Shown: one piece after another, positions 6,001 through 40,374 of the stretch
Numbering within the stretch: the first letter of the stretch is position 1
How the letters are laid out: every line of letters begins with the position of its first letter
Source: an uncultured Acidobacteriia bacterium
GTDB lineage: Bacteria > Acidobacteriota > Terriglobia > Bryobacterales > Bryobacteraceae
Direction of reading: 5' to 3'
Length of the DNA: 42,721 nucleotides
NCBI GenBank assembly: GCA_903925015.1
Contig: CAIYDY010000244.1
Coordinates: forward strand, 1-42,721
Made by a program: the position numbers and the translations under genes
The notes under the pieces: model-generated
Database searches by the model: none
What the model was told of the DNA's origin: nothing
What the model saw: the letters and a program-made list of their open reading frames with translations, nothing else

Positions 6001-6822
6001 CTAGGGCTTTCCCAGCCAAGCCTCATATGCGTCAAGCACTGTAGCGCCGCGGTACGTGACGATCCGGCCGGCTGTTTCGCCGGGTCCGGGTTTGTACTCG
6101 AAGACCAATTCAATGGGCCCGGGAATCTTCCAGGGGTTGAAGTCCCGCGCGTGAGCCACGGCTGTGCGCGCGGCCTCGCGGATCTTTTGTTTAGCCACCT
6201 CGTGCGACAGGCTCAGCGATAACATCTTTCCGGCAAGTCTCTTCACCGCCACCGTCGACGCTTTTGGCTGCAGGGCTGTTATCTCCAAGCAGGCAGCTTC
6301 ATCACCCGACAGCATGATGACCGGGATGCCGAAGTATCCGGCAATGGCCGCGACCTGCCCCATTTCGCCTACTTCACGGTCGTTCAGGGTCAGCCGCTTC
6401 ACGGAAAAGCTTTGCGTATGCGCCAGCACGGCGTTCTTCGTCCCCGCCATCGCGTGCTGACCCACGAACATGACGCCGTCGTACAGTTTTTCCGAGAAGT
6501 AGTAGTTGGCTGGTGTCGGCTTGCCCTGGATCAGCCTGGCCTTCGGGTGGATTTCGTCCACCGACAGGGTGCGGCTGCCGTCATGCCCATCCCAAATCAC
6601 GATTTCCCCCGCGCCAGCCAGCAGTGCGCCCTCGACCGCAGCGTTCACCTCGCCAGTCAAAATCTTGCGCGATTCCATGTAGCGCCGCTGTCCGGGGAGC
6701 AGTTGTTCGTCGGCATCGTTCACGCCGCCAACGCCTTCCAAGTCGGTCACAATCAGAATCTTCGGACCCTGTCCGAAACACACACCAGCGATGAACAGAA
6801 TCCCCGCCATGAGTCGCCGCAC
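6001..6822 (-). CDS. M55 family D-aminopeptidase (DppA-like), exported
   Basis: The zinc-peptidase ligands of B. subtilis DppA can be aligned by spacing: D27 and E29 (TDLEGVGG), H80 (WDGHDGS), H123 (GQHAMAGT) and E153 (EVGEMGQ), with H135 (LAHTQSF) matching the catalytic histidine. DppA cleaves D-amino acids from short peptides. Unlike cytoplasmic DppA, this protein has a hydrophobic leader (MAGILFIAGVCFGQG), so it probably acts in the periplasm, perhaps on cell-wall-derived peptides. GTG 6822 is preferred because GGGAGG lies four bases upstream; ATG 6855 and ATG 6810 are alternatives. Stand-alone, divergent from the ABC transporter. Confidence 0.88.
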   Translation of the reverse strand: MRRLMAGILFIAGVCFGQGPKILIVTDLEGVGGVNDADEQLLPGQRRYMESRKILTGEVNAAVEGALLAGAGEIVIWDGHDGSRTLSVDEIHPKARLIQGKPTPANYYFSEKLYDGVMFVGQHAMAGTKNAVLAHTQSFSVKRLTLNDREVGEMGQVAAIAGYFGIPVIMLSGDEAACLEITALQPKASTVAVKRLAGKMLSLSLSHEVAKQKIREAARTAVAHARDFNPWKIPGPIELVFEYKPGPGETAGRIVTYRGATVLDAYEAWLGKP

Positions 6823-6826
6823 AATA

Positions 6827-6832
6827 CCTCCC
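6827..6832 (-). promoter_or_regulatory. ribosome binding site fixing the GTG start of the M55 gene
   Basis: On the minus strand GGGAGG is followed by TATT and then GTG (6822-6820). A strong Shine-Dalgarno is unusual in this window, and here it lies downstream of the longer in-frame ATG at 6855, arguing that the longer form is not made. Confidence 0.6.
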
Positions 6833-6929
6833 GGTAGAAACCACATTCTACCCATCCAAAATTTTCGACCGTTCGCGCCTCTTTTCGAACACCAGTGGTG
6901 CGGATTCCGTTACTCTGGTGGCGGGACAT

Positions 6930-7859
6930 ATGAGTGAAGAACTGGCAATATCCGTACGCGGGTTACGAAAGAGTTACGGTGACTTCGAAGCCGTCCGGGG
7001 ACTTGACTTCGAGGTTCGAAACGGCGAAGTTTTTGGACTGCTCGGACCCAACGGGGCGGGAAAAACCACGACCATCGAGATCTTGGAAGGCATCCGGCAA
7101 CGGACTGCGGGCGACGTTCTGGTTCTTGGGTTCGACCCCGACAAGCAGAAGCAGCTCCTGAAGGACCGGATCGGCGTCTGCCTCCAAGCAACCAACCTGC
7201 CGGCGAAAATCCGGGTCCATGAGGCGCTCGTCCTCTTCGGCGCGCTCTACAGCCGGATGCTGAGTCCCACAGACCTGCTGAAGCGCCTGCAACTCTGGGA
7301 CAAGCGTGATGCCTTCTTCGAAACACTCTCCGGTGGGCAGAAACAGCGGCTGGCCATCGCGCTGGGACTGATCAACGACCCGAATCTACTGTTTCTCGAC
7401 GAGCCCTCCACAGGCCTCGACCCCCAGGTGCGCCTTGAGATCCACTCCCTGATCCAGGATCTGCGCAACGAGAAGCGGACGATCCTGATGACCACGCACT
7501 ACATCGAGGAGGCCGAGCGGTTGTGCGATCGGGTCGCGATTGTCGACGCAGGCAAGGTGATCGCCATCGGTTCGCCGCGCGAGCTGATGGAAAAGAGCGC
7601 GGGGAAATCGACGATTGAGATTGAGTGTTCAGTATCGCTGCTGGGCCGCGCGATTCCGCAATGGCCGGAAGCGACGGACGCGAAACTGGCGGACAATCCG
7701 CGCCGCATGGTGGTCCACTCCACCAAGCCCGCGCGCACCCTTGTGGAAATGATCAAGTGGGTGGAATCCGAGGGGCTCGAACTGGAGGACGTGCACCTCA
7801 GTCGGCCCACACTGGAAGACGTCTTCATCGAATTGACCGGCAAGAGGCTGAGAGACTAA
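6930..7859 (+). CDS. ABC transporter ATP-binding protein
   Basis: Complete ABC ATPase of 309 residues: Walker A GPNGAGKT (39-46), signature LSGGQKQR (133-140), Walker B LLFLDEPSTGLD (153-164) and switch histidine H190. The C-terminal 100 residues (beginning near VDAGKVIAIGSP) form the extension typical of DrrA/CcmA-type exporter ATPases. ATG 6930 is chosen over GTG 6918 because it begins the usual N-terminus. The stop codon overlaps the start of the permease gene (TAATG), so the two are translationally coupled and should form one exporter. Drug, lipid or polysaccharide export are all possible; sequence does not decide. Confidence 0.93.
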   Translation: MSEELAISVRGLRKSYGDFEAVRGLDFEVRNGEVFGLLGPNGAGKTTTIEILEGIRQRTAGDVLVLGFDPDKQKQLLKDRIGVCLQATNLPAKIRVHEALVLFGALYSRMLSPTDLLKRLQLWDKRDAFFETLSGGQKQRLAIALGLINDPNLLFLDEPSTGLDPQVRLEIHSLIQDLRNEKRTILMTTHYIEEAERLCDRVAIVDAGKVIAIGSPRELMEKSAGKSTIEIECSVSLLGRAIPQWPEATDAKLADNPRRMVVHSTKPARTLVEMIKWVESEGLELEDVHLSRPTLEDVFIELTGKRLRD

Positions 7860-10057
7860 TGAAAACCTATCTGGCGCTGATTCTGAACGACATCCGGCTG
7901 GCCTTCCGCCAGAAGGTGGTCATCTTCTTCAACTACTTGATGCCGATGGGCTTCTTCCTGATCTTCGCCACGGCGTTCCATGCCGAGCAGGGCGGGGCGA
8001 TTCTGCAGACGGTCACGATGGTGTCGGTGATCGGCATTCTTGGAAACGGCCTCTTCGGAGCCGGAATGCGTGCCGTGCAAGAGCGCGAAACCAACATTCT
8101 GCGCCGGTACAAGGTGGCCCCGATATCACCCCTGCCCCTGCTGGTGGCCTCCACCATTACTGGTCTTGTGGTTTACATGCCGTACGTGTTTGCGATGTTC
8201 ACCTTGGCCCATTTCACATACGGTATGGCCGTACCGCCCAATCTCCTGACGGTTTTCGCTTTCATCATGCTGGGGTTGATCGCCGTGCGGTCGATTGGCC
8301 TTATCATCGCTTCGACCGTGAACTCCATGCAGGAGAGCGCGATCATCGTCCAGATCGCCTACATGTCGATGCTGTTCCTCAGTGGCTCCACCTTTCCTAC
8401 CTCGATGTTTCCGGACTGGCTGCTGGTTGTTACCCAGTTCATTCCGGCCACCCACATCGTGACCGGGTTGCAGGGGATTCTAATGCGGCAGGAGACATTG
8501 GCTACAAATTGGCAGTCCGTACTTGCCTTGGCGTTGACCGCCGTGACCGGGCTCTTCCTCTGCGTCAAGCTTTTCCGTTGGGAGAAGGAAGAGAAGATGC
8601 GTCCCGCAGCCAAGCTGTGGATTCTGGCCGTGCTGGTTCCGTTTCTGGCCGTTGGCGCATGGCAGGCCAAAACGAAGGAAAACGTCACCAAGAACAAGAT
8701 TCTGGGTCGGGAGATGCAGCGTTCGAGGACAGTGCTGATCCGCAACGCAAGGATCATTACTGGAACCGGGCGGGTGATTGAGAACGGCGGCGTCCTTCTG
8801 AAGGCTGGAAAAATCGAAGCCATTTACGAGGACAATATTCCCGAGGCGGATTCGGTTCGCGCGGTCGGTGTGGAGGCTGCGGGCAAGACCGTGATGCCGG
8901 GCTTGATCGACATGCATGTCCACCTGGGTGCGCCCGGCGGAATCATGACCGATTGGAAGGACTACGATGCGGACAAGGCGGCGCAGCGGGAATTGGCCGC
9001 GTACCTTTACTCCGGTGTGACTGCTGTCCGGAGCTTGGGCGACATGGCCGAGGGAATCCTGAAGATCCGCCAGACGGTGAACAGCGCGGAAAAGCTGGGA
9101 GCTGAACTTTTTGCGGTCGGCCCGCTCTTTACCACCACCGGCGGGCATGGCACCGAGTACTTCCGGGCGATGCCGGAACCGGTCCGAAAGCAACTGGATG
9201 CGCAATTTGTCCGAATTCCGAAATCGGATGCCGACGCCAAGGCGATGGTGGACGCGCTGAAGGCAATGGGCGTGGACGGGATCAAGGCTGTGATGGAGGC
9301 CGGTGCGGGCGCGACGCACTTTGAGCGGATGGACCCGCGCATTCTGGCTGCTATCGGGGCCGCGGCGAAAGCCGATGGGTTGCGGATGGCGGTGCATACC
9401 GGCGATCCGCGCGATATTGAGGATGCCATTGCAGCGGGAGCGTCGTCGATTGAGCACGGCTCCTATCGCCAGCGCATTCCGGACGCCGATTTCGCGCTGA
9501 TGGCGAAAAACGGGATTGCCTTTGACCCAACACTGTCGGTTGGGGAGGCTTTCCAGCAGTTCGCCGCCGGGAAACTGGATCTGCTGGGCCGGTCTTTGGT
9601 GCAACAGGCTGCGCCGCCCAAGATTCTTGCGGCTACGATGAAGAGCATCGAGACGCCCGACGTCGTCGCCATGCGGAAGCGGCTGGCCGATTACCCAATC
9701 GACATGGCCATCGCAAAGGACAACCTAGTGCGCGCATTCAAGGCCGGGGTGACTCTGGTTACAGGCACCGACGCGGGAAATATGCTGGTTCTGCACGGTC
9801 CTACCGTCCAGCACGAGTTGCAATTGTGGGTGGAAGCGGGCATTCCGCCGCTTGACGCGATCCAAGCCGCGACGGCGAATTCGGCGAAGTTGCTGGGTGC
9901 GGTCGGGCGCTTCGGGACCATTGAAAAAGGGCGCGACGCAACATTGTTGATCGTCGACGGTAATCCGCTGACGGACATCCACGCACTGGAGGCGATTTCG
10001 TTCGTGATGTTCAAGGGGGAACGGGTGACCAGGTCGGAATTGTTCGACCAGGAGTAA
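7859..10057 (+). CDS. fusion: ABC-2 type permease plus metal-dependent amidohydrolase
   Basis: One uninterrupted 732-codon frame encodes two proteins. Residues 1-246 are an ABC-2 permease with six predicted membrane segments, ending in the usual KLFRWEKEEK. Residues 247-732 are a full amidohydrolase of the imidazolonepropionase-like group: MHVHLG (H353, H355), a lysine in GVDGIKAVMEAG, MAVHTGDP, SIEHGSY and TGTDAGNM. Between them M247-RPAAKLWILAVLVPFLAVGA looks like an N-terminal signal peptide and would act as a seventh membrane segment, placing the enzyme outside the cytoplasmic membrane. A good Shine-Dalgarno precedes codon 247, so a free amidohydrolase may also be made by internal initiation. 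Co-expressed with the ATPase; followed by a hairpin. Confidence 0.88.
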   Translation: MKTYLALILNDIRLAFRQKVVIFFNYLMPMGFFLIFATAFHAEQGGAILQTVTMVSVIGILGNGLFGAGMRAVQERETNILRRYKVAPISPLPLLVASTITGLVVYMPYVFAMFTLAHFTYGMAVPPNLLTVFAFIMLGLIAVRSIGLIIASTVNSMQESAIIVQIAYMSMLFLSGSTFPTSMFPDWLLVVTQFIPATHIVTGLQGILMRQETLATNWQSVLALALTAVTGLFLCVKLFRWEKEEKMRPAAKLWILAVLVPFLAVGAWQAKTKENVTKNKILGREMQRSRTVLIRNARIITGTGRVIENGGVLLKAGKIEAIYEDNIPEADSVRAVGVEAAGKTVMPGLIDMHVHLGAPGGIMTDWKDYDADKAAQRELAAYLYSGVTAVRSLGDMAEGILKIRQTVNSAEKLGAELFAVGPLFTTTGGHGTEYFRAMPEPVRKQLDAQFVRIPKSDADAKAMVDALKAMGVDGIKAVMEAGAGATHFERMDPRILAAIGAAAKADGLRMAVHTGDPRDIEDAIAAGASSIEHGSYRQRIPDADFALMAKNGIAFDPTLSVGEAFQQFAAGKLDLLGRSLVQQAAPPKILAATMKSIETPDVVAMRKRLADYPIDMAIAKDNLVRAFKAGVTLVTGTDAGNMLVLHGPTVQHELQLWVEAGIPPLDAIQAATANSAKLLGAVGRFGTIEKGRDATLLIVDGNPLTDIHALEAISFVMFKGERVTRSELFDQE
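8581..8596 (+). promoter_or_regulatory. internal ribosome binding site before the amidohydrolase half
   Basis: GGAGAAGGAAGAGAAG directly precedes in-frame ATG 8597. The AAGGA core at 8585-8589 is 7 nt from the ATG, an optimal spacing. It codes for the end of the permease (EKEEK) and would allow separate translation of a 486-residue amidohydrolase starting with a signal peptide. The purine-rich run could also be just the Lys/Glu-rich permease tail. Confidence 0.5.
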
Positions 10058-10095: not shown

Positions 10096-10160
10096 TGTAA
10101 AACTGTTGTAAAACCGGCATCGCGGTTGGGAACCCGTTCGCCATCGGGCTTCAAACACGC

Positions 10161-10166
10161 TAAAAT
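10161..10166 (+). promoter_or_regulatory. possible -10 box of the signalling/envelope operon
   Basis: TAAAAT (5 of 6 matches to TATAAT) lies 10 nt before ATG 10177 of the OmpR-type regulator, predicting a very short leader. A -35 match at the right distance is poor (TTCGCC at 10137-10142). Confidence 0.35.
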
Positions 10167-10176
10167 CGCAGTGCCG

Positions 10177-10851
10177 ATGCAAACCATTCTCGTGATCGAC
10201 GATGACGACAGCCTGCGGGACACGATCGGGGTCCTGTTCGAGCGGGAAGGCTTCCGCGCGATCCTCGCAGCCGATGCCCGGACTGGTCTCGACCAGGCCA
10301 TTCTCGCGAAACCGAGCCTGATCGTCACCGACCTCCGCCTCCCAGACCTTTCCGGCGTCGAGGTCTGCAAGCGCCTCCGCACGTCCGGTGTTACGACGCC
10401 AATCATTGTCCTGAGCGCGGTTGGCGAGGAAATCGACAAGGTCCTGCTGCTCGAAATCGGGGCCGACGACTACATTGTGAAGCCGTTCGGGACACGCGAG
10501 CTGTTGGCACGGGTGCGGGCGGTATTGAGGCGTTCCCCTTCGGAGCCGCACAAAGTCCTATCCTTTGCAGACGTAGAGGTCGATCTGGAACGCCGCATTG
10601 TGCGGCGGAAGGGTATCGATATCAAATTCACGCCTGCGGAGTACAACCTGCTGACGTTCTTCTTGCAAAACCCGGACCGGCCGCTGTCGCGCGACATGAT
10701 CCTGAACTCGGTCTGGGGCTACGAATCCTTTCCGAACACGCGCACGGTGGACGCCCATGTGGTGCGGCTGCGCCAGAAGCTGGAGGCGGATCCGGTGATT
10801 CCGCGCCACTTCCTGACACTCCACAAGGTGGGATACCGGTTCCTGCCCTAG
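10177..10851 (+). CDS. OmpR-family response regulator (receiver plus winged helix)
   Basis: The receiver domain (1-115) has acidic residues D8-D10, phospho-acceptor D52 (IVTDLRLPD), S80 and K102 (VKPFG). The winged-helix DNA-binding domain (about 125-224) ends with the typical KVGYRFLP. ATG 10177 is used; in-frame TTG 10126 and GTG 10171 are less likely. It heads a same-strand run with a lone receiver (8-nt gap), a porin-like protein, a cupredoxin and a histidine kinase. The kinase is the natural phosphate donor and the operon itself is a plausible target, both inferred from position. Confidence 0.93.
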   Translation: MQTILVIDDDDSLRDTIGVLFEREGFRAILAADARTGLDQAILAKPSLIVTDLRLPDLSGVEVCKRLRTSGVTTPIIVLSAVGEEIDKVLLLEIGADDYIVKPFGTRELLARVRAVLRRSPSEPHKVLSFADVEVDLERRIVRRKGIDIKFTPAEYNLLTFFLQNPDRPLSRDMILNSVWGYESFPNTRTVDAHVVRLRQKLEADPVIPRHFLTLHKVGYRFLP

Positions 10852-10859
10852 GGGCGATC

Positions 10860-11225
10860 ATGTCGAGACTTGTGATCATCGTCGAAGACAGCGCCGCCTG
10901 CGCGGAGACGCTGCAGATTGCCTTGGAGGGAATACCGGATATCGAGATTCGGATCCTGCCCAGTCCGCGTGCCGCCATGGCTTTGGCCGGAAGTGGCGAG
11001 GTAGCTGCAATTCTTACCGACCGGCATTTGCCGCATGCGGATGGTTTTGATTTTATCCGGCAATTGCGGGCTGATCCCCGTTTCACAACTCTCCCGGTAT
11101 TATTGATTAGTGGCGACAGCGATCCCCGGCTTCCGGCCCAGGCGCTGGCAGTGGGCGCGAACGCGTTTTTCTCGAAACCGTATTCGCCCGCAGCCGTCCG
11201 CCGTAAACTGGAGGAGCTTATTTGA
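10860..11225 (+). CDS. single-domain response regulator (receiver only)
   Basis: This 121-residue protein is only a CheY-like receiver: E9 and D10, phospho-acceptor D54 (ILTDRHLPHADG), S84 (LLISGDSD) and K106 (FFSKPYSP) are all present, so it should be phosphorylatable. There is no output domain. It could be a phosphate sink, an intermediate of a phosphorelay, or act by protein contact. It starts at ATG 10860 after GGGGCG, 8 nt downstream of the OmpR-type gene. Its last codons hold the ribosome binding site and TTG start of the next gene (TTGA overlap). Confidence 0.88.
   Translation: MSRLVIIVEDSAACAETLQIALEGIPDIEIRILPSPRAAMALAGSGEVAAILTDRHLPHADGFDFIRQLRADPRFTTLPVLLISGDSDPRLPAQALAVGANAFFSKPYSPAAVRRKLEELI
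11210..11214 (+). promoter_or_regulatory. ribosome binding site supporting a TTG start
   Basis: GGAGG lies 7 nt before TTG 11222. The next in-frame methionine (residue 31) falls after the signal peptide, so TTG is the start that gives an exported protein. Confidence 0.6.
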
Positions 11226-13288: not shown

Positions 13289-15010
13289 ATGTCCAGGCTC
13301 ACCCGACCGTCGCTCCTCTGGAAAATCGGGATTTCGACCTCGGTCGCGATCACTTTGCTGCTGGCCATCGCGGGCTATTTTGTGCAGGCCCGCACCCAGC
13401 AGCAGCTGTCGGAAAACCTCGAGACCCAGCTGCGGGGAAATTTCAAAGCCTATGAGTCTCTGTGGAGCGCGCGGGCGGACCTGCTGCGCTCGCTGAGTAC
13501 GGTTCTCAGCGGCATGTCGGATGTCCGGGCCGCATTTCAGACCAATGACAAGGCGACGATTCAAGATACAGCCGGCGAGATTTGGAAGCGCGTCTCAGAA
13601 TCGAGCGCGATCTTCCTTGTCACCGACCCTCGGGGCGAGGTGATTGCCTCCCTCGGCGGCAAGTTTGGGACGCCCCGCCGTTTGGATGTGGTCCGCGAGG
13701 CCATTCCGCGATTTCCGGGGCAGTCTGCTGGATTCGCCCTCCAGGACGACGGGCTATACGAGTTCGTTGTCACGCCCGTCTATGTCCAGGTACAGACCGG
13801 CCCCGAGTTGCTGAATGTACTGGTGACAGGCTTTCCGGTGGACCAGCAAGTGGCATTGGACTTGCGGGAACGCACAGGCGGGAGCGATTTTGTGTTTTTG
13901 TCGATGGGCAGGGTTGTTTCCTCGACGCTGAACCGGGACGAGACGACGCGCCTTGCCCACGAGTACCACCGCAGTGCGGATTTGCAGCGGATTGGCGTGG
14001 CCGGTCGGGAATTCGCCGTTCTTGGAACACCGTTGCAGGATATTTCCGGTGTGCCAGTCGGGGATCTGCTGATTGTCCACAACTTTGATGCGATCCGGCG
14101 TGACCTCGACTCCCTGCAGAACCAATTGATCTTGATCTGGGCGGCTGCCGTGATTGCTGGTATGGCGCTCAGCGTGTATCTGGCTGGTCGAATCCTGCAG
14201 CCGATTGGCCAACTGGACCGTGCCGCCACTCTGATAGGCATGCAGAAGTACGACACCCGCGTGCCGGACGGCGGCAACGACGAGCTTGGCCGATTGGCCC
14301 GAACGTTCAACGACATGTGCCGTTCGATCCAAGCCGCGCGGGAGGAATTGATCCGGCAGGAACGAATTGCCACGATCGGGCGGCTTTCGAGTTCCATCGT
14401 GCATGACCTCCGCAATCCGCTCGCATCGATCTACGGCGGTGCCGAGATGATGATGGACGGCGACCTGAACCAGAGCCAATTGAAGCGGATCGCCGGCAAC
14501 ATCTACCGGTCGTCGAGGGTGATCAAGGACATGCTGCAGCAGCTGGTGGATGTCGGGCGCGGACGTACGGAAGCCCCGGAATACTGCAACTTGGCGGAAG
14601 TGGTGGGCGCGGCGGTGGATTTGCAGACCCCGGCGGCGGAGACGCAGGGCGTGGATATTCTATGCACCGTGGATCCGGCCATTGAGATCCCACTGGAGCC
14701 CGGACGAATGGAACGCGTGTTCGTCAACCTGATTTCCAATGCCGTGGAGGCAATGCCGGACGGCGGGGAGATCCGGATTGCCTCCCAGCGCAGCGAAGGC
14801 TCGATTCTGATCACAGTGGATGACAACGGGCCGGGAATTCCGGCGTCCGTGCGGGAGCGGTTGTTCCAGCCGTTTGTGTCGTCGGGTAAGAATGGGCTGG
14901 GGTTGGGGCTCGCGCTTTCGCGGCAGACGGTTCTGGACCACGGGGGGGATCTGTGGATCGCGGATGACTCCACTCCGGGAGCGCATTTCCGGCTCCGCTT
15001 GCCTGCCTGA
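13289..15010 (+). CDS. membrane sensor histidine kinase with periplasmic Cache-like domain
   Basis: Transmembrane segment 1 is about residues 12-32, then a periplasmic sensor of about 245 residues of double-Cache type (IFLVTDPRGEVIAS, VTPVYVQV), transmembrane segment 2 about 280-300, and a HAMP domain (PIGQLDRAATLIG... DELGRLARTFNDM). The kinase core has H372 (SSIVHDLRNPLASI), an N-box NLISNAVEAM, DDNGPGIP and GLGLGLALSR. All catalytic motifs are present. It closes the operon that begins with the OmpR-type regulator, 14 nt after the cupredoxin gene. The adjoining copper protein suggests, but does not prove, a metal or redox signal. Confidence 0.93.
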   Translation: MSRLTRPSLLWKIGISTSVAITLLLAIAGYFVQARTQQQLSENLETQLRGNFKAYESLWSARADLLRSLSTVLSGMSDVRAAFQTNDKATIQDTAGEIWKRVSESSAIFLVTDPRGEVIASLGGKFGTPRRLDVVREAIPRFPGQSAGFALQDDGLYEFVVTPVYVQVQTGPELLNVLVTGFPVDQQVALDLRERTGGSDFVFLSMGRVVSSTLNRDETTRLAHEYHRSADLQRIGVAGREFAVLGTPLQDISGVPVGDLLIVHNFDAIRRDLDSLQNQLILIWAAAVIAGMALSVYLAGRILQPIGQLDRAATLIGMQKYDTRVPDGGNDELGRLARTFNDMCRSIQAAREELIRQERIATIGRLSSSIVHDLRNPLASIYGGAEMMMDGDLNQSQLKRIAGNIYRSSRVIKDMLQQLVDVGRGRTEAPEYCNLAEVVGAAVDLQTPAAETQGVDILCTVDPAIEIPLEPGRMERVFVNLISNAVEAMPDGGEIRIASQRSEGSILITVDDNGPGIPASVRERLFQPFVSSGKNGLGLGLALSRQTVLDHGGDLWIADDSTPGAHFRLRLPA

Positions 15011-38931: not shown

Positions 38932-40374
38932 ATGGTTTTGTTTCGGAGGTTGCTTGGCATTCTTGCGTTGGCATCGGCCGTATTTGCCCAGTCGGGGCCG
39001 GTTGCGATCATCAATGTCCATGTAGTGGATGTGGTCAAGGGGCAAGTTGTCCCAGGGCAGACGGTCGTTTTAGCGGGCGGAAAGATTGCCGCGTTAGGAC
39101 CTGTTGCCTCCACCCCGATTCCGGCGGGGGCGCAACGGGTGCCCGGGGACGGGCGGTACCTGATTCCCGGCCTCTGGGACATGCACGTCCACTTGCGCAG
39201 CGACCAGGCAAAACCGAATACCCGTATCGCGGACGAGAACGCCGCCACCCTGGATCTGTTTCTGCCCAACGGTATCACCGGAATCCGCGAAATGGGTGGC
39301 GATCTTGCGGATCAGATCTTTCAGTGGCGGGAGGAGATTCGGACGGGCAAGCGATCCGGTCCCCGTATTCTGACCGCCGGACGAAAACTCGACAACGATC
39401 CGCCAGCTTGGGCCGGTTCCATCGGCGTCAAGACTCCAGCCGATGCTCGTGAAGGCGTCCGCCAGATGAAGCAGGCCGGGGCCGATTTCATCAAGATCTA
39501 CTTCCGCCAGACCCCGGTTCAAGTCGTCCGCGCGGTGGTGGAGGAGGCGCACCGGAACAATCTGAAGGTGACCGGGCACAAGCCGTCGAATCTGTCCATC
39601 CAGGAATTTCTGGAGACCGGGATTGACGGCATGGAGCATGCACAGTACTTGGTAGCGACCGACCGGGCAGACTATGACCGGATGAATGCAGAGTTTGATC
39701 GCCGCCGTGGCAAGGATTGGGCTGCCGATGCACTGGAGCAGCAGGCCCGCCTTCTTGCGATGCAGGATGACGCCGAGGGCACGAAGGTTTGGAAGGCGAT
39801 GGCAGGGAAGCAGTTCTGGGTGACGCCAACCATCCACGTTTCCAGCCAGGTGATGCAGGATGGCACCCGCAACTATGATTCGGATGATCGGCGGCGCTAC
39901 ATTCCGCCATCGATTTGGGCATCGTGGGACCCCAAGGGCTTTCGCAAGCCCATCGAGGGTCGGGCGTTGACGCTGCGGAAGGCCTCCCAGAAACGCTGGG
40001 ATGATGTGACGGTGGCGGCGAACAAGGCTGGGGTTCCGATGATTGTTGGGACCGACTGCGGGTCGAACAACAACTACACCATGCCGGGTTGGTCGATGGT
40101 GGAGGAAATGGAGGCGCTGGTGAAGGTTGGACTGCCGCCCGCCGAAGTCCTGCGGATGGCCACCGTCAATCCGGCAAAGTGGAGGGGGGAGTTGGAGCGC
40201 GAAGGTACTGTTGATCCGGGCAAGGTTGCGGATCTGGTGCTGCTGCGGTCGAATCCGTTGGAATCGATCACGCACACGAAGGAGATCGAGGCGGTGTTCC
40301 AATCGGGTCGGTATTACCCGCGGTCGGAGCTGGACGGGATGCTCCAGCGGGCCGAGTCAAAACGGAATTTTTGA
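38932..40374 (+). CDS. exported amidohydrolase (imidazolonepropionase-like group)
   Basis: Signal peptide (FRRLLGILALASAVFAQSG) and a composite beta-sandwich/TIM-barrel. Metal-binding positions: H85 and H87 (LWDMHVHLRS), lysine in GADFIKIYF, histidines in KVTGHKPSN and GMEHAQYL, aspartate in MIVGTDCG. It ends with the usual GTVDPGKVADLVLLRSNPL. Substrate unknown; related secreted proteins may act on cyclic dipeptides or N-acyl amino acids. It is 21 nt from the M20 peptidase on the same strand, so the pair may degrade peptides together. It belongs to the same broad group as the amidohydrolase half at 8597-10057. Confidence 0.9.
   Translation: MVLFRRLLGILALASAVFAQSGPVAIINVHVVDVVKGQVVPGQTVVLAGGKIAALGPVASTPIPAGAQRVPGDGRYLIPGLWDMHVHLRSDQAKPNTRIADENAATLDLFLPNGITGIREMGGDLADQIFQWREEIRTGKRSGPRILTAGRKLDNDPPAWAGSIGVKTPADAREGVRQMKQAGADFIKIYFRQTPVQVVRAVVEEAHRNNLKVTGHKPSNLSIQEFLETGIDGMEHAQYLVATDRADYDRMNAEFDRRRGKDWAADALEQQARLLAMQDDAEGTKVWKAMAGKQFWVTPTIHVSSQVMQDGTRNYDSDDRRRYIPPSIWASWDPKGFRKPIEGRALTLRKASQKRWDDVTVAANKAGVPMIVGTDCGSNNNYTMPGWSMVEEMEALVKVGLPPAEVLRMATVNPAKWRGELEREGTVDPGKVADLVLLRSNPLESITHTKEIEAVFQSGRYYPRSELDGMLQRAESKRNF

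What the first reader, a model, noticed from the sequence alone, without database searches (positions are those of the whole stretch)
7859..10057. ABC-2 permease fused in frame to a complete amidohydrolase through a signal-peptide-like segment
The frame contains a normal-length permease (ending KLFRWEKEEK) directly followed by M247 and a typical signal peptide, then a whole metal-dependent amidohydrolase. The embedded signal would become a seventh membrane span and put the enzyme on the outside, where such amidohydrolases normally act. An AAGGA site 7 nt before ATG 8597 would also allow a separate enzyme from the same mRNA. This suggests an exporter whose product or peptide substrate is processed at the exit side, or a recent gene fusion by loss of a stop codon.
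Basis: partly seen in the sequence, partly recalled or inferred. Interest (0 to 1): 0.7.

Follow-up and report, generated by a model that had tools for sequence, protein, structure and literature searches.

The report
Exporter carrying an outward-facing enzyme
In a family of soil bacteria, a membrane pump is built as one protein with an enzyme on its outer end; the enzyme has been lost or broken many times while the remains stay under selection, so it probably does more for the pump than just cut molecules.

Summary
Window 7859-10057 encodes one 732-aa protein: an ABC-2 permease (Pfam, residues 5-208) followed by a complete amidohydrolase (344-723). It is neither an assembly error nor recent: the junction profile hits 159 of 237 family genomes, and 149 of 150 fetched loci read through into the enzyme. 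An ATPase gene lies just upstream in 140 of 140 testable loci.

Two parts of the reading fail. The 'signal peptide' is the permease's own seventh helix, kept in unfused relatives. The internal ATG is not conserved (Met in 26 of 150).

New: fused permeases are not one clade (AU p 0.0008). Stand-alone relatives of the enzyme sit beside such transporters. Of 143 complete family loci, 82 keep all six metal ligands and 51 are degenerate, 42 with large deletions. The remnants stay under purifying selection (omega 0.05-0.39 in 14 pairs).

Most likely: an exporter with a tethered outer-face amidohydrolase, probably active here, reduced to a binding or structural domain in relatives. Location and substrate are untested.

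The parts
6918..7859 (+). ABC transporter ATPase gene (DrrA/NodI-like, 313 aa), partner of the permease; its TAA overlaps the fusion's ATG by one base
   Evidence: Pfam ABC_tran 5e-28; TIGR01188 drrA 267 bits, below its cut-off 312; an ATPase match on the same strand within the 1.2 kb upstream in 140 of 140 family loci with >=700 bp upstream
7859..10057 (+). Permease-amidohydrolase fusion gene, 732 aa
   Evidence: near-full-length in 27 of 100 relatives
7859..8572 (+). ABC-2 permease part with six membrane helices (residues 1-238)
   Evidence: Pfam ABC2_membrane / ABC2_membrane_3; AlphaFold helices; nearest solved permease by sequence, 8tsh_C (E 0.0004), aligns to residues 6-243 only
8573..8602 (+). 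Short cytoplasmic loop FRWEKEEKMR; FRWEK motif in 148 of 150 family loci, FRWDK in 2
8585..8589 (+). AAGGA, 7 nt before ATG 8597: purine-rich because it codes for the conserved WEKEEK; not supported as a ribosome-binding site
8603..8674 (+). TM7 (residues 249-272), native to this permease type
   Evidence: hydropathy 1.92, helix 249-272, kept in unfused permeases of G002, G530, G044, G337, G099, G092; absent from the more distant unfused permeases of G668 and G675
8675..8731 (+). Basic helical linker, residues 273-291 (6 K/R, 2 D/E)
8732..10054 (+). Amidohydrolase domain (residues 292-732), Xaa-Pro dipeptidase / Cc2672 / ochratoxinase-like fold
   Evidence: Pfam; best PDB sequence 2qs8_A 1.8e-34; Foldseek 2qs8_A TM 0.86 by target length
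8915..8923 (+). Presumed metal ligands H353 and H355 (HxH)
   Evidence: aligned columns; the ligand role is recalled family knowledge
9284..9286 (+). Presumed bridging (carboxylated) lysine K476
   Evidence: role recalled
9395..9397 (+). Presumed metal ligand H513
   Evidence: role recalled
9455..9457 (+). Presumed metal ligand H533
   Evidence: role recalled
9770..9772 (+). Presumed metal ligand / general base D638
   Evidence: role recalled

Best explanation
It is an ABC-2 type exporter (ATPase at 6918-7859 plus the fused permease). The permease has a seventh membrane helix of its own, so its C-terminus leaves the membrane on the outer (periplasmic) side and carries a metal-dependent amidohydrolase of the Xaa-Pro / Xaa-Arg dipeptidase type. 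ATP hydrolysis would move a substrate out through the permease dimer, and the tethered enzyme, one per protomer, would bind it at the exit and cut an amide bond. In this genome the metal site is complete, so the enzyme is probably active. In relatives the same domain has repeatedly lost its ligands, or its barrel core, while staying in frame and under purifying selection, so it must also do something that does not need catalysis: holding the substrate, or stabilising or gating the permease. Shown: fusion, distribution, TM7 in unfused relatives, complete ligand set here, repeated decay, selection on the remnants, linkage of stand-alone relatives to transporters. Inferred: outer-face location, export direction, dimer, cleavage of the exported substrate. 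Unknown: the substrate.
For: Junction profile in 159 of 237 family genomes, with 149 of 150 fetched loci reading on into the enzyme. ATPase upstream in 140 of 140 testable loci. Unfused permeases end soon after TM7. Six ligands intact in the window and in 82 of 143 complete family loci. Unfused relatives of the enzyme, beginning with what look by eye like signal or anchor segments, sit next to an ATPase and an ABC-2 permease in G309 and in G668 and G675; 0 of 17 other amidohydrolase loci had such an ATPase within about 1.5 kb. Fused permeases as a single clade are rejected, AU p 0.0008, so the pairing arose or was kept more than once. AlphaFold model pLDDT 88.9, pTM 0.86, with helix 249-272 leading into the enzyme. 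In G675 (all genes typed) and G668 (SagD and ThiF typed) the unfused set lies in a thiazole/oxazole-modified peptide cluster, which hints at peptide-like cargo.
Against: 51 of 143 complete loci have a dead or gutted domain, and three family-type permeases lack it altogether (G002, G530, G044), so cleavage at the exit is not essential to the transporter. The modified-peptide (SagD) gene is absent from this genome, from the 18 same-genus genomes and from the other fused lineages tested outside the family. The segment after TM7 is basic (6 K/R), so charge alone does not prove that the C-terminus is outside. The unfused permeases of G668 and G675 end before TM7, so TM7 is not universal. No export, enzyme activity or substrate was measured. 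Stand-alone relatives linked to transporters are neither shown nor rejected as one clade with the fused ones (AU p 0.54).
Confidence: 0.5

Rival explanations
1. The outer domain is mainly a binding, gating or assembly domain of the exporter; hydrolysis is an ancestral activity kept only in some lineages. The domain would act like a fixed periplasmic receptor or lid on the permease dimer.
For: Degenerate domains in 51 of 143 complete loci (42 with large deletions, 9 full-length); in the 140 loci labelled on the tree they occur in 21 of 41 genera, 6 genera having both states. The deletion label needs 13 changes on the permease tree, 8 forced by strong branches (quick tree). Omega of the remnant domain 0.05-0.39 in 14 close pairs of degenerate loci. 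The gutted-clade model still folds with confidence (pLDDT 82.7) and is still amidohydrolase-like (2qs8, TM 0.52-0.53 by target length).
Against: All six ligands kept in 82 of 143 loci, including the window; constraint on the domain relative to the permease is relaxed once the core is lost (median ratio 2.91 against 1.46); three lineages lost the whole domain and kept the permease.
Confidence: 0.3
2. The exporter only anchors the enzyme: the amidohydrolase works independently on periplasmic or environmental dipeptides or amides, and transport and hydrolysis have different substrates.
For: The nearest solved relatives are stand-alone hydrolases; the 17 other amidohydrolase loci looked at are not next to such a transporter.
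Against: Repeated pairing with the same kind of exporter, fused or adjacent, in several lineages; retention of dead remnants under selection is not expected of a mere anchor.
Confidence: 0.12
3. The amidohydrolase sits in the cytoplasm: residues 249-272 do not cross the membrane, and the enzyme prepares or inspects cargo before export.
For: Basic residues on both sides of the segment.
Against: Hydropathy 1.92 and a 24-residue helix; the segment is conserved more than a soluble linker would need; stand-alone transporter-linked relatives begin with what look like signal or anchor segments (by eye).
Confidence: 0.06
4. Two proteins are made from the gene: the fusion and a separate enzyme started at ATG 8597 (or, in relatives, at another internal ATG).
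For: AAGGA 7 nt before ATG 8597 in the window; 92 of 150 loci have some ATG within codons 244-271 (positions not broken down).
Against: Met at 247 in 26 of 150 loci and any start codon there in 39 of 150; the purine run is in 131 of 150 regardless; a start inside TM7 would cut the helix.
Confidence: 0.03

Closest known systems
ZmaM / EdeA-type prodrug peptidases (ClbP-like peptidase fused to an ABC half-transporter)
   Same: One protein joins an ABC transporter part to a prodrug-activating peptidase of the ClbP kind, which acts after export (passages and abstract start of PMC9889268 seen)
   Different: There a beta-lactamase-superfamily peptidase (PF00144) precedes an ABC half-transporter; here an ABC-2 permease precedes a metal-dependent amidohydrolase, the ATPase is a separate gene, and many relatives have a dead hydrolase
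PCAT transporters (C39 peptidase-containing ABC transporters)
   Same: Export coupled to processing in one polypeptide (passages of PMC10885120 seen)
   Different: PCATs carry an N-terminal C39 cysteine peptidase and their own ATPase domain; here the enzyme is C-terminal, probably on the outer side, and of another fold
DrrAB / NodIJ / KpsMT-type ABC-2 exporters
   Same: ATPase and permease families and gene order; nearest solved permease by sequence 8tsh_C, 'transport permease protein'; ATPase nearest TIGR01188; the KpsMT name for 8tsh is recalled
   Different: Seventh membrane helix and a fused hydrolase; below the DrrA and DrrB model cut-offs
Xaa-Pro dipeptidase 2qs8, Cc2672 (3mtw), ADH3 / ochratoxinase
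   Same: Fold and best sequence and structure matches of the enzyme half
   Different: Those are stand-alone enzymes; here the enzyme is tethered to an exporter; far below the NF051886 cut-off (169 against 500 bits)

Membership tests
ABC-2 type permease (PF01061) | Pfam gathering score | tested here: met
   67.3 bits against 26.9
ABC-2 type permease (PF01061) | partner ATPase encoded next to it | tested here: met
   140 of 140 loci with >=700 bp upstream
ABC-2 type permease (PF01061) | six membrane helices, N- and C-terminus inside (recalled) | tested here: not met
   six helices plus a conserved seventh; prediction only, no wet test. This concerns the usual fold, not the Pfam assignment
Daunorubicin exporter DrrAB (TIGR01188 / TIGR01247) | curated score cut-offs | tested here: not met
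   267 against 312 bits (ATPase), 45 against 223 (permease)
Amidohydrolase family (PF01979) | Pfam gathering score and metal-ligand residues | tested here: met
   103 against 25 bits; H353, H355, K476, H513, H533, D638 all present (ligand roles recalled)
Amidohydrolase family (PF01979) | hydrolytic activity | not testable with these tools
   needs purified protein
Xaa-Pro dipeptidase NF051886 | equivalog cut-off | tested here: not met
   169 against 500 bits
PCAT (C39-ABC) | N-terminal C39 peptidase domain | tested here: not met
   no such Pfam match in the protein at E <= 0.001
ZmaM-like fused prodrug peptidase | PF00144 peptidase domain | tested here: not met
   no such Pfam match at E <= 0.001
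TOMM / LAP biosynthetic cluster | SagD-type YcaO cyclodehydratase | tested here: not met
   no match in this genome; met beside the unfused set of G668 and G675

The most novel reading that the evidence does not exclude
An ABC exporter whose outer domain began as a working amidohydrolase and has been turned, many times independently, into a selected non-catalytic part of the pump: a tethered pseudoenzyme serving as its exit-side receptor or gate. The same coupling was invented more than once (family, f70, f78/f93), which makes the enzyme a modular exit domain for seven-helix ABC-2 permeases.
Probability: 0.35. Interest if true: 0.75.

Novelty: new variant of a known kind. Interest (0 to 1): 0.6.

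Why it matters
Exporters fused to processing enzymes are known, but the searches made here (open-licence papers only) listed no paper on an ABC-2 permease carrying an amidohydrolase. The natural series (active site complete, ligands lost, barrel gutted, domain gone; all on one conserved permease) is a ready-made experiment on what an exit-side enzyme domain does for an ABC exporter, and on how enzymes become non-catalytic parts. It also points to an uncharacterised export system spread through a family of soil bacteria.

Tried and rejected
Assembly error or recent stop loss: rejected by 149 of 150 family loci reading through. Separate enzyme from ATG 8597: disfavoured by non-conservation. Captured signal peptide: rejected by unfused permeases with the same TM7. 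A conserved operon that would give the substrate: apart from the ATPase, and the antisense frames of it, the largest neighbour clusters hold 34 and then 17 or fewer of 121 loci. The 34 are a DJ-1/PfpI gene; searched directly it lies upstream in 58 of 96 loci with >=2.5 kb upstream, in 31 of 35 with deleted and 19 of 46 with intact domains (Fisher p 1e-5, not corrected for relatedness), function not worked out. Modified-peptide cargo for this genome: SagD absent here and in the 18 same-genus genomes; in the family 42 of 237 genomes match at E<=1e-20 and 18 of 237 over the cut-off; of 11 named genomes tested only G668, G675 and the unfused G530 have it. One origin for all transporter-linked amidohydrolases: undecided (AU p 0.54). 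Plasmid records: 285 match, none covers 80% of the query. Defence library: no match for the fusion; its ATPase matched 14 models, best mad3 at 2e-31, which I take as a generic ABC ATPase match. Viral fold library: nothing useful. Literature: searches returned no paper; some searches returned 1-2 papers each, seen as listings with the start of the abstract; passages of two were read.

Rows dropped before counts: of 159 family genomes with a junction match, 150 loci were fetched; of the nine others G002 and G044 were fetched separately (unfused), and G105, G106, G135, G144, G148, G208 and G275 were not examined. Of 150 loci, 7 are not counted in the ligand census: L035, L082, L097, L133 and L154 run to a contig end, L034 is split over two frames, and L147 has a stop. 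Three rows were too short for the permease tree (147 kept, 140 labelled). The gutted-clade alignment used 15 of 18 loci (three had an uncertain start). The permease of G309 was in the tree (very long branch) and left out. The one-clade test was named after the tree had been seen. The 38 pairs were chosen as disjoint close pairs of the same class (permease dN under 0.2, dS 0.05-1.6, domain dS under 1.8); the 4 pairs with one or two ligands changed are left out of its test.
Full report
What is there. Window 7859-10057 (+) is one open frame of 732 residues. Residues 5-208 match ABC2_membrane and residues 344-723 match Amidohydro_1, both above the curated cut-offs. The stop of the upstream ATPase gene (6918-7859) overlaps the start of the fusion by one base. 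The seven named records found, 67-98% identical to the protein, are MAGs titled Acidobacteriia, Bryobacterales or Bryobacteraceae, so the window is most likely from an uncultured Bryobacteraceae (inference).

The fusion is real and old. Of 100 relatives, 27 genomes besides the window carry it over nearly the full length in one open frame with no stop, at 98-45% identity (26 of them were given loci). A profile of the junction alone (residues 205-304) matches 159 of 237 genomes of the same family and 47 of 76 genera; a match alone does not prove fusion, since G002 and G044 match and are unfused. I fetched 150 of these 159 loci (existing loci). In 149 of 150 the open frame runs through the junction into the enzyme. 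One, L147, has a TAG just after TM7 followed by an otherwise complete enzyme frame; L034 is split over two frames further on, and five are cut by contig ends. An ATPase match lies on the same strand within the 1.2 kb upstream in 140 of 140 loci with at least 700 bp upstream; 10 loci were too short to test.

The 'signal peptide' is the permease's seventh helix. Related permeases with no enzyme keep the same FRWE...KLW...PF-like segment and end soon after it: G530, G337 and others, G002 from the window's own genus, G044, G099 and G092, the last three with short tails. Against this, the more distant unfused permeases of G668 and G675 end at FRWE and lack the helix, so it is not universal. The nearest solved permease by sequence aligns only to residues 6-243, before this helix (E 0.0004). 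FRWEK is present in 148 of 150 loci and FRWDK in 2. AlphaFold gives a 24-residue helix at 249-272 that leads into the enzyme (pLDDT 88.9, pTM 0.86). With six permease helices and an inside N-terminus (family knowledge; positive loops at 1-18 and 73-90) the enzyme should lie outside. Caveat: the stretch after TM7 is also basic, and I had no coordinates with which to measure which side the domain lies on.

No conserved second start. Residue 247 is Met in 26 of 150 loci. Codon 247 is any start codon in 39 of 150, and an SD-like purine run occurs in codons 240-246 of 131 of 150 whether or not a start follows: it encodes the conserved WEKEEK. Some ATG within codons 244-271 occurs in 92 of 150; I did not break these down, and many would lie inside TM7.

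The enzyme half. Best sequence match among solved structures is Xaa-Pro dipeptidase 2qs8 (1.8e-34); Foldseek gives 2qs8 at TM 0.86 by target length, with Cc2672, the arginine carboxypeptidase 3be7 and the ochratoxin hydrolases also high. The six presumed metal ligands (assignment recalled from the family) are all present in the window protein.

Decay while fused. Of 143 complete family loci, 82 keep all six ligands, 10 have one or two changed at full length, 9 are full-length but have lost more, and 42 have large deletions, mostly within residues 420-556, that is, in the barrel core. On a tree of the permease part (147 rows, 140 labelled) the intact / not-intact label needs 20 changes (14 forced by strong branches) and the deletion label 13 (8 forced) (quick tree, so approximate). 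In disjoint close pairs the median omega of the domain is 0.138 in intact pairs (20), 0.194 in deletion pairs (12, highest 0.391) and 0.126 in full-length degenerate pairs (2); the ratio of domain to permease omega is 1.46 in intact and 2.91 in deletion pairs (Mann-Whitney, intact against all 14 degenerate pairs, p 0.0007). The remnants are thus constrained, though less relative to the permease than when the site is complete; omega of the domain itself does not differ significantly between the two classes (p 0.13). A gutted-clade model still folds with confidence (pLDDT 82.7) and still matches 2qs8 best, with a much lower TM score (0.52-0.53 by target length).

Loss of the whole domain. G002 (same genus), G044 (same family) and G530 (another family of the class) have family-type permeases that end soon after TM7, and all three fall inside the family clade of the permease tree (100/99), G530 and G044 with moderate inner support. 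The permease can do without the enzyme; in these cases TM7 stays.

The pairing arose or persisted more than once. Outside the family, full fusions occur in G648 and G667 (f70; 2 of 3 genomes of that family), G473 (f78) and G673 (f93). In an even sample of the phylum, 3 of 396 genomes had a match over both halves (the window's, G648, G473, E <= 1e-50, two candidates scored per genome, so a lower bound); in the class of G648, 3 of 147 (G648, G667, G673); in the class of G473, 1 of 147. The frames were read. With the junction profile alone 12 of 396 phylum genomes match: the window's, G648 fused, two with another C-terminal extension and eight unfused. Holding all fused permeases together as one clade is rejected (AU p 0.0008): f78 and f93 form one deep group, f70 groups with the unfused permease of G337, and the family groups with the unfused permeases of G099 and G092. 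So there were several fusions, or many losses. In G648 the fusion carries a further CIA30 domain. Unfused relatives of the enzyme, beginning with what look by eye like signal or anchor segments, lie beside an ATPase and an ABC-2 permease in G309 (the permease there is of a more distant kind) and, as a tandem pair, in G668 and G675. As a control, 0 of 17 other amidohydrolase loci had such an ATPase within about 1.5 kb. Whether all transporter-linked enzymes form one clade is undecided (AU p 0.54).

Cargo. The G675 cluster also encodes SagD-type (323 bits, cut-off 219), SagC-like (TIGR03882, 74 bits, cut-off 37) and SagB-type (136 bits, cut-off 78) enzymes of thiazole/oxazole-modified peptides; in G668 the SagD match (322 bits) and a ThiF-family match were tested. 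This suggests peptide-like cargo for those relatives. It does not carry over directly: no SagD match in the window's genome or in G648, G667, G673, G473 or G309, none in the 18 same-genus genomes, and only 42 of 237 in the family (18 over the cut-off). The only frequent extra neighbour in the family is a DJ-1/PfpI gene, in 58 of 96 loci (family named).

Mechanism. Shown: the fused gene, its distribution, TM7 in unfused relatives, the complete ligand set here, the repeated decay, the selection on remnants and the transporter linkage. Inferred: export (from the ATPase and permease families), enzyme outside, cleavage of cargo at the exit. I put 0.5 on exit-side processing in this genome and 0.3 on a mainly binding or structural role; both may hold in different lineages.

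Known relatives. ZmaM-type proteins join a ClbP-like peptidase to an ABC half-transporter (passages of PMC9889268), and PCATs join a C39 peptidase to an ABC transporter (passages of PMC10885120). The principle is the same; the permease class, the enzyme, the order of the parts and the decay series are different. Of six literature searches for this combination, four returned nothing and two returned three papers that do not look related by title and abstract start; they cover open-licence papers only.

Limits. The phylum and class searches are samples. Nothing outside the phylum was searched except plasmid records, the viral fold library and the named-genome scan, which uses close-relative patterns.

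Noticed in passing
L216:6402-17928 and L215:29-12034: Tandem stand-alone amidohydrolases, a CIA30 protein, SagB/C/D-type genes, a protein weakly like an HExxH maturation protease (below its cut-off) and an ABC-2 exporter in one apparent thiazole/oxazole-modified peptide cluster in two genomes (G675, G668).
   Followed up: partly
L053, L054, L205:7726-9387 (-): The same permease type with TM7 and a different, Pro/Ala-rich C-terminal extension without any further Pfam match (L053 and L054 tested): perhaps another exit-side domain.
   Followed up: partly
L204:6277-8700 (-), L199:5585-8122 (-): The gene after the permease in G648 (fused) and G337 (unfused) is a LytS-type histidine kinase (PF06580) with TPR-like repeats below the cut-offs, homologous in both.
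   Followed up: partly
upstream of the ATPase in 58 of 96 family loci: DJ-1/PfpI gene; with deleted domains in 31 of 35 and with intact ones in 19 of 46 (relatedness not corrected).
   Followed up: partly
window 6001-6855 (-): Divergent M55 D-aminopeptidase gene beside the ATPase; it is not among the 25 largest neighbour clusters.
   Followed up: partly
window 38992-40332 (+): A second amidohydrolase frame (487 aa) in the same window, with weak matches to both ends of the fused enzyme.
   Followed up: no
L147, codon after TM7: A TAG just behind TM7 in G259, with the enzyme frame otherwise complete: a sequencing error or a natural split.
   Followed up: partly
window 10126-11225 and 13289-15010 (+): Response-regulator and sensor-kinase-like genes downstream of the fusion (read by eye from the ORF list).
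   Followed up: no
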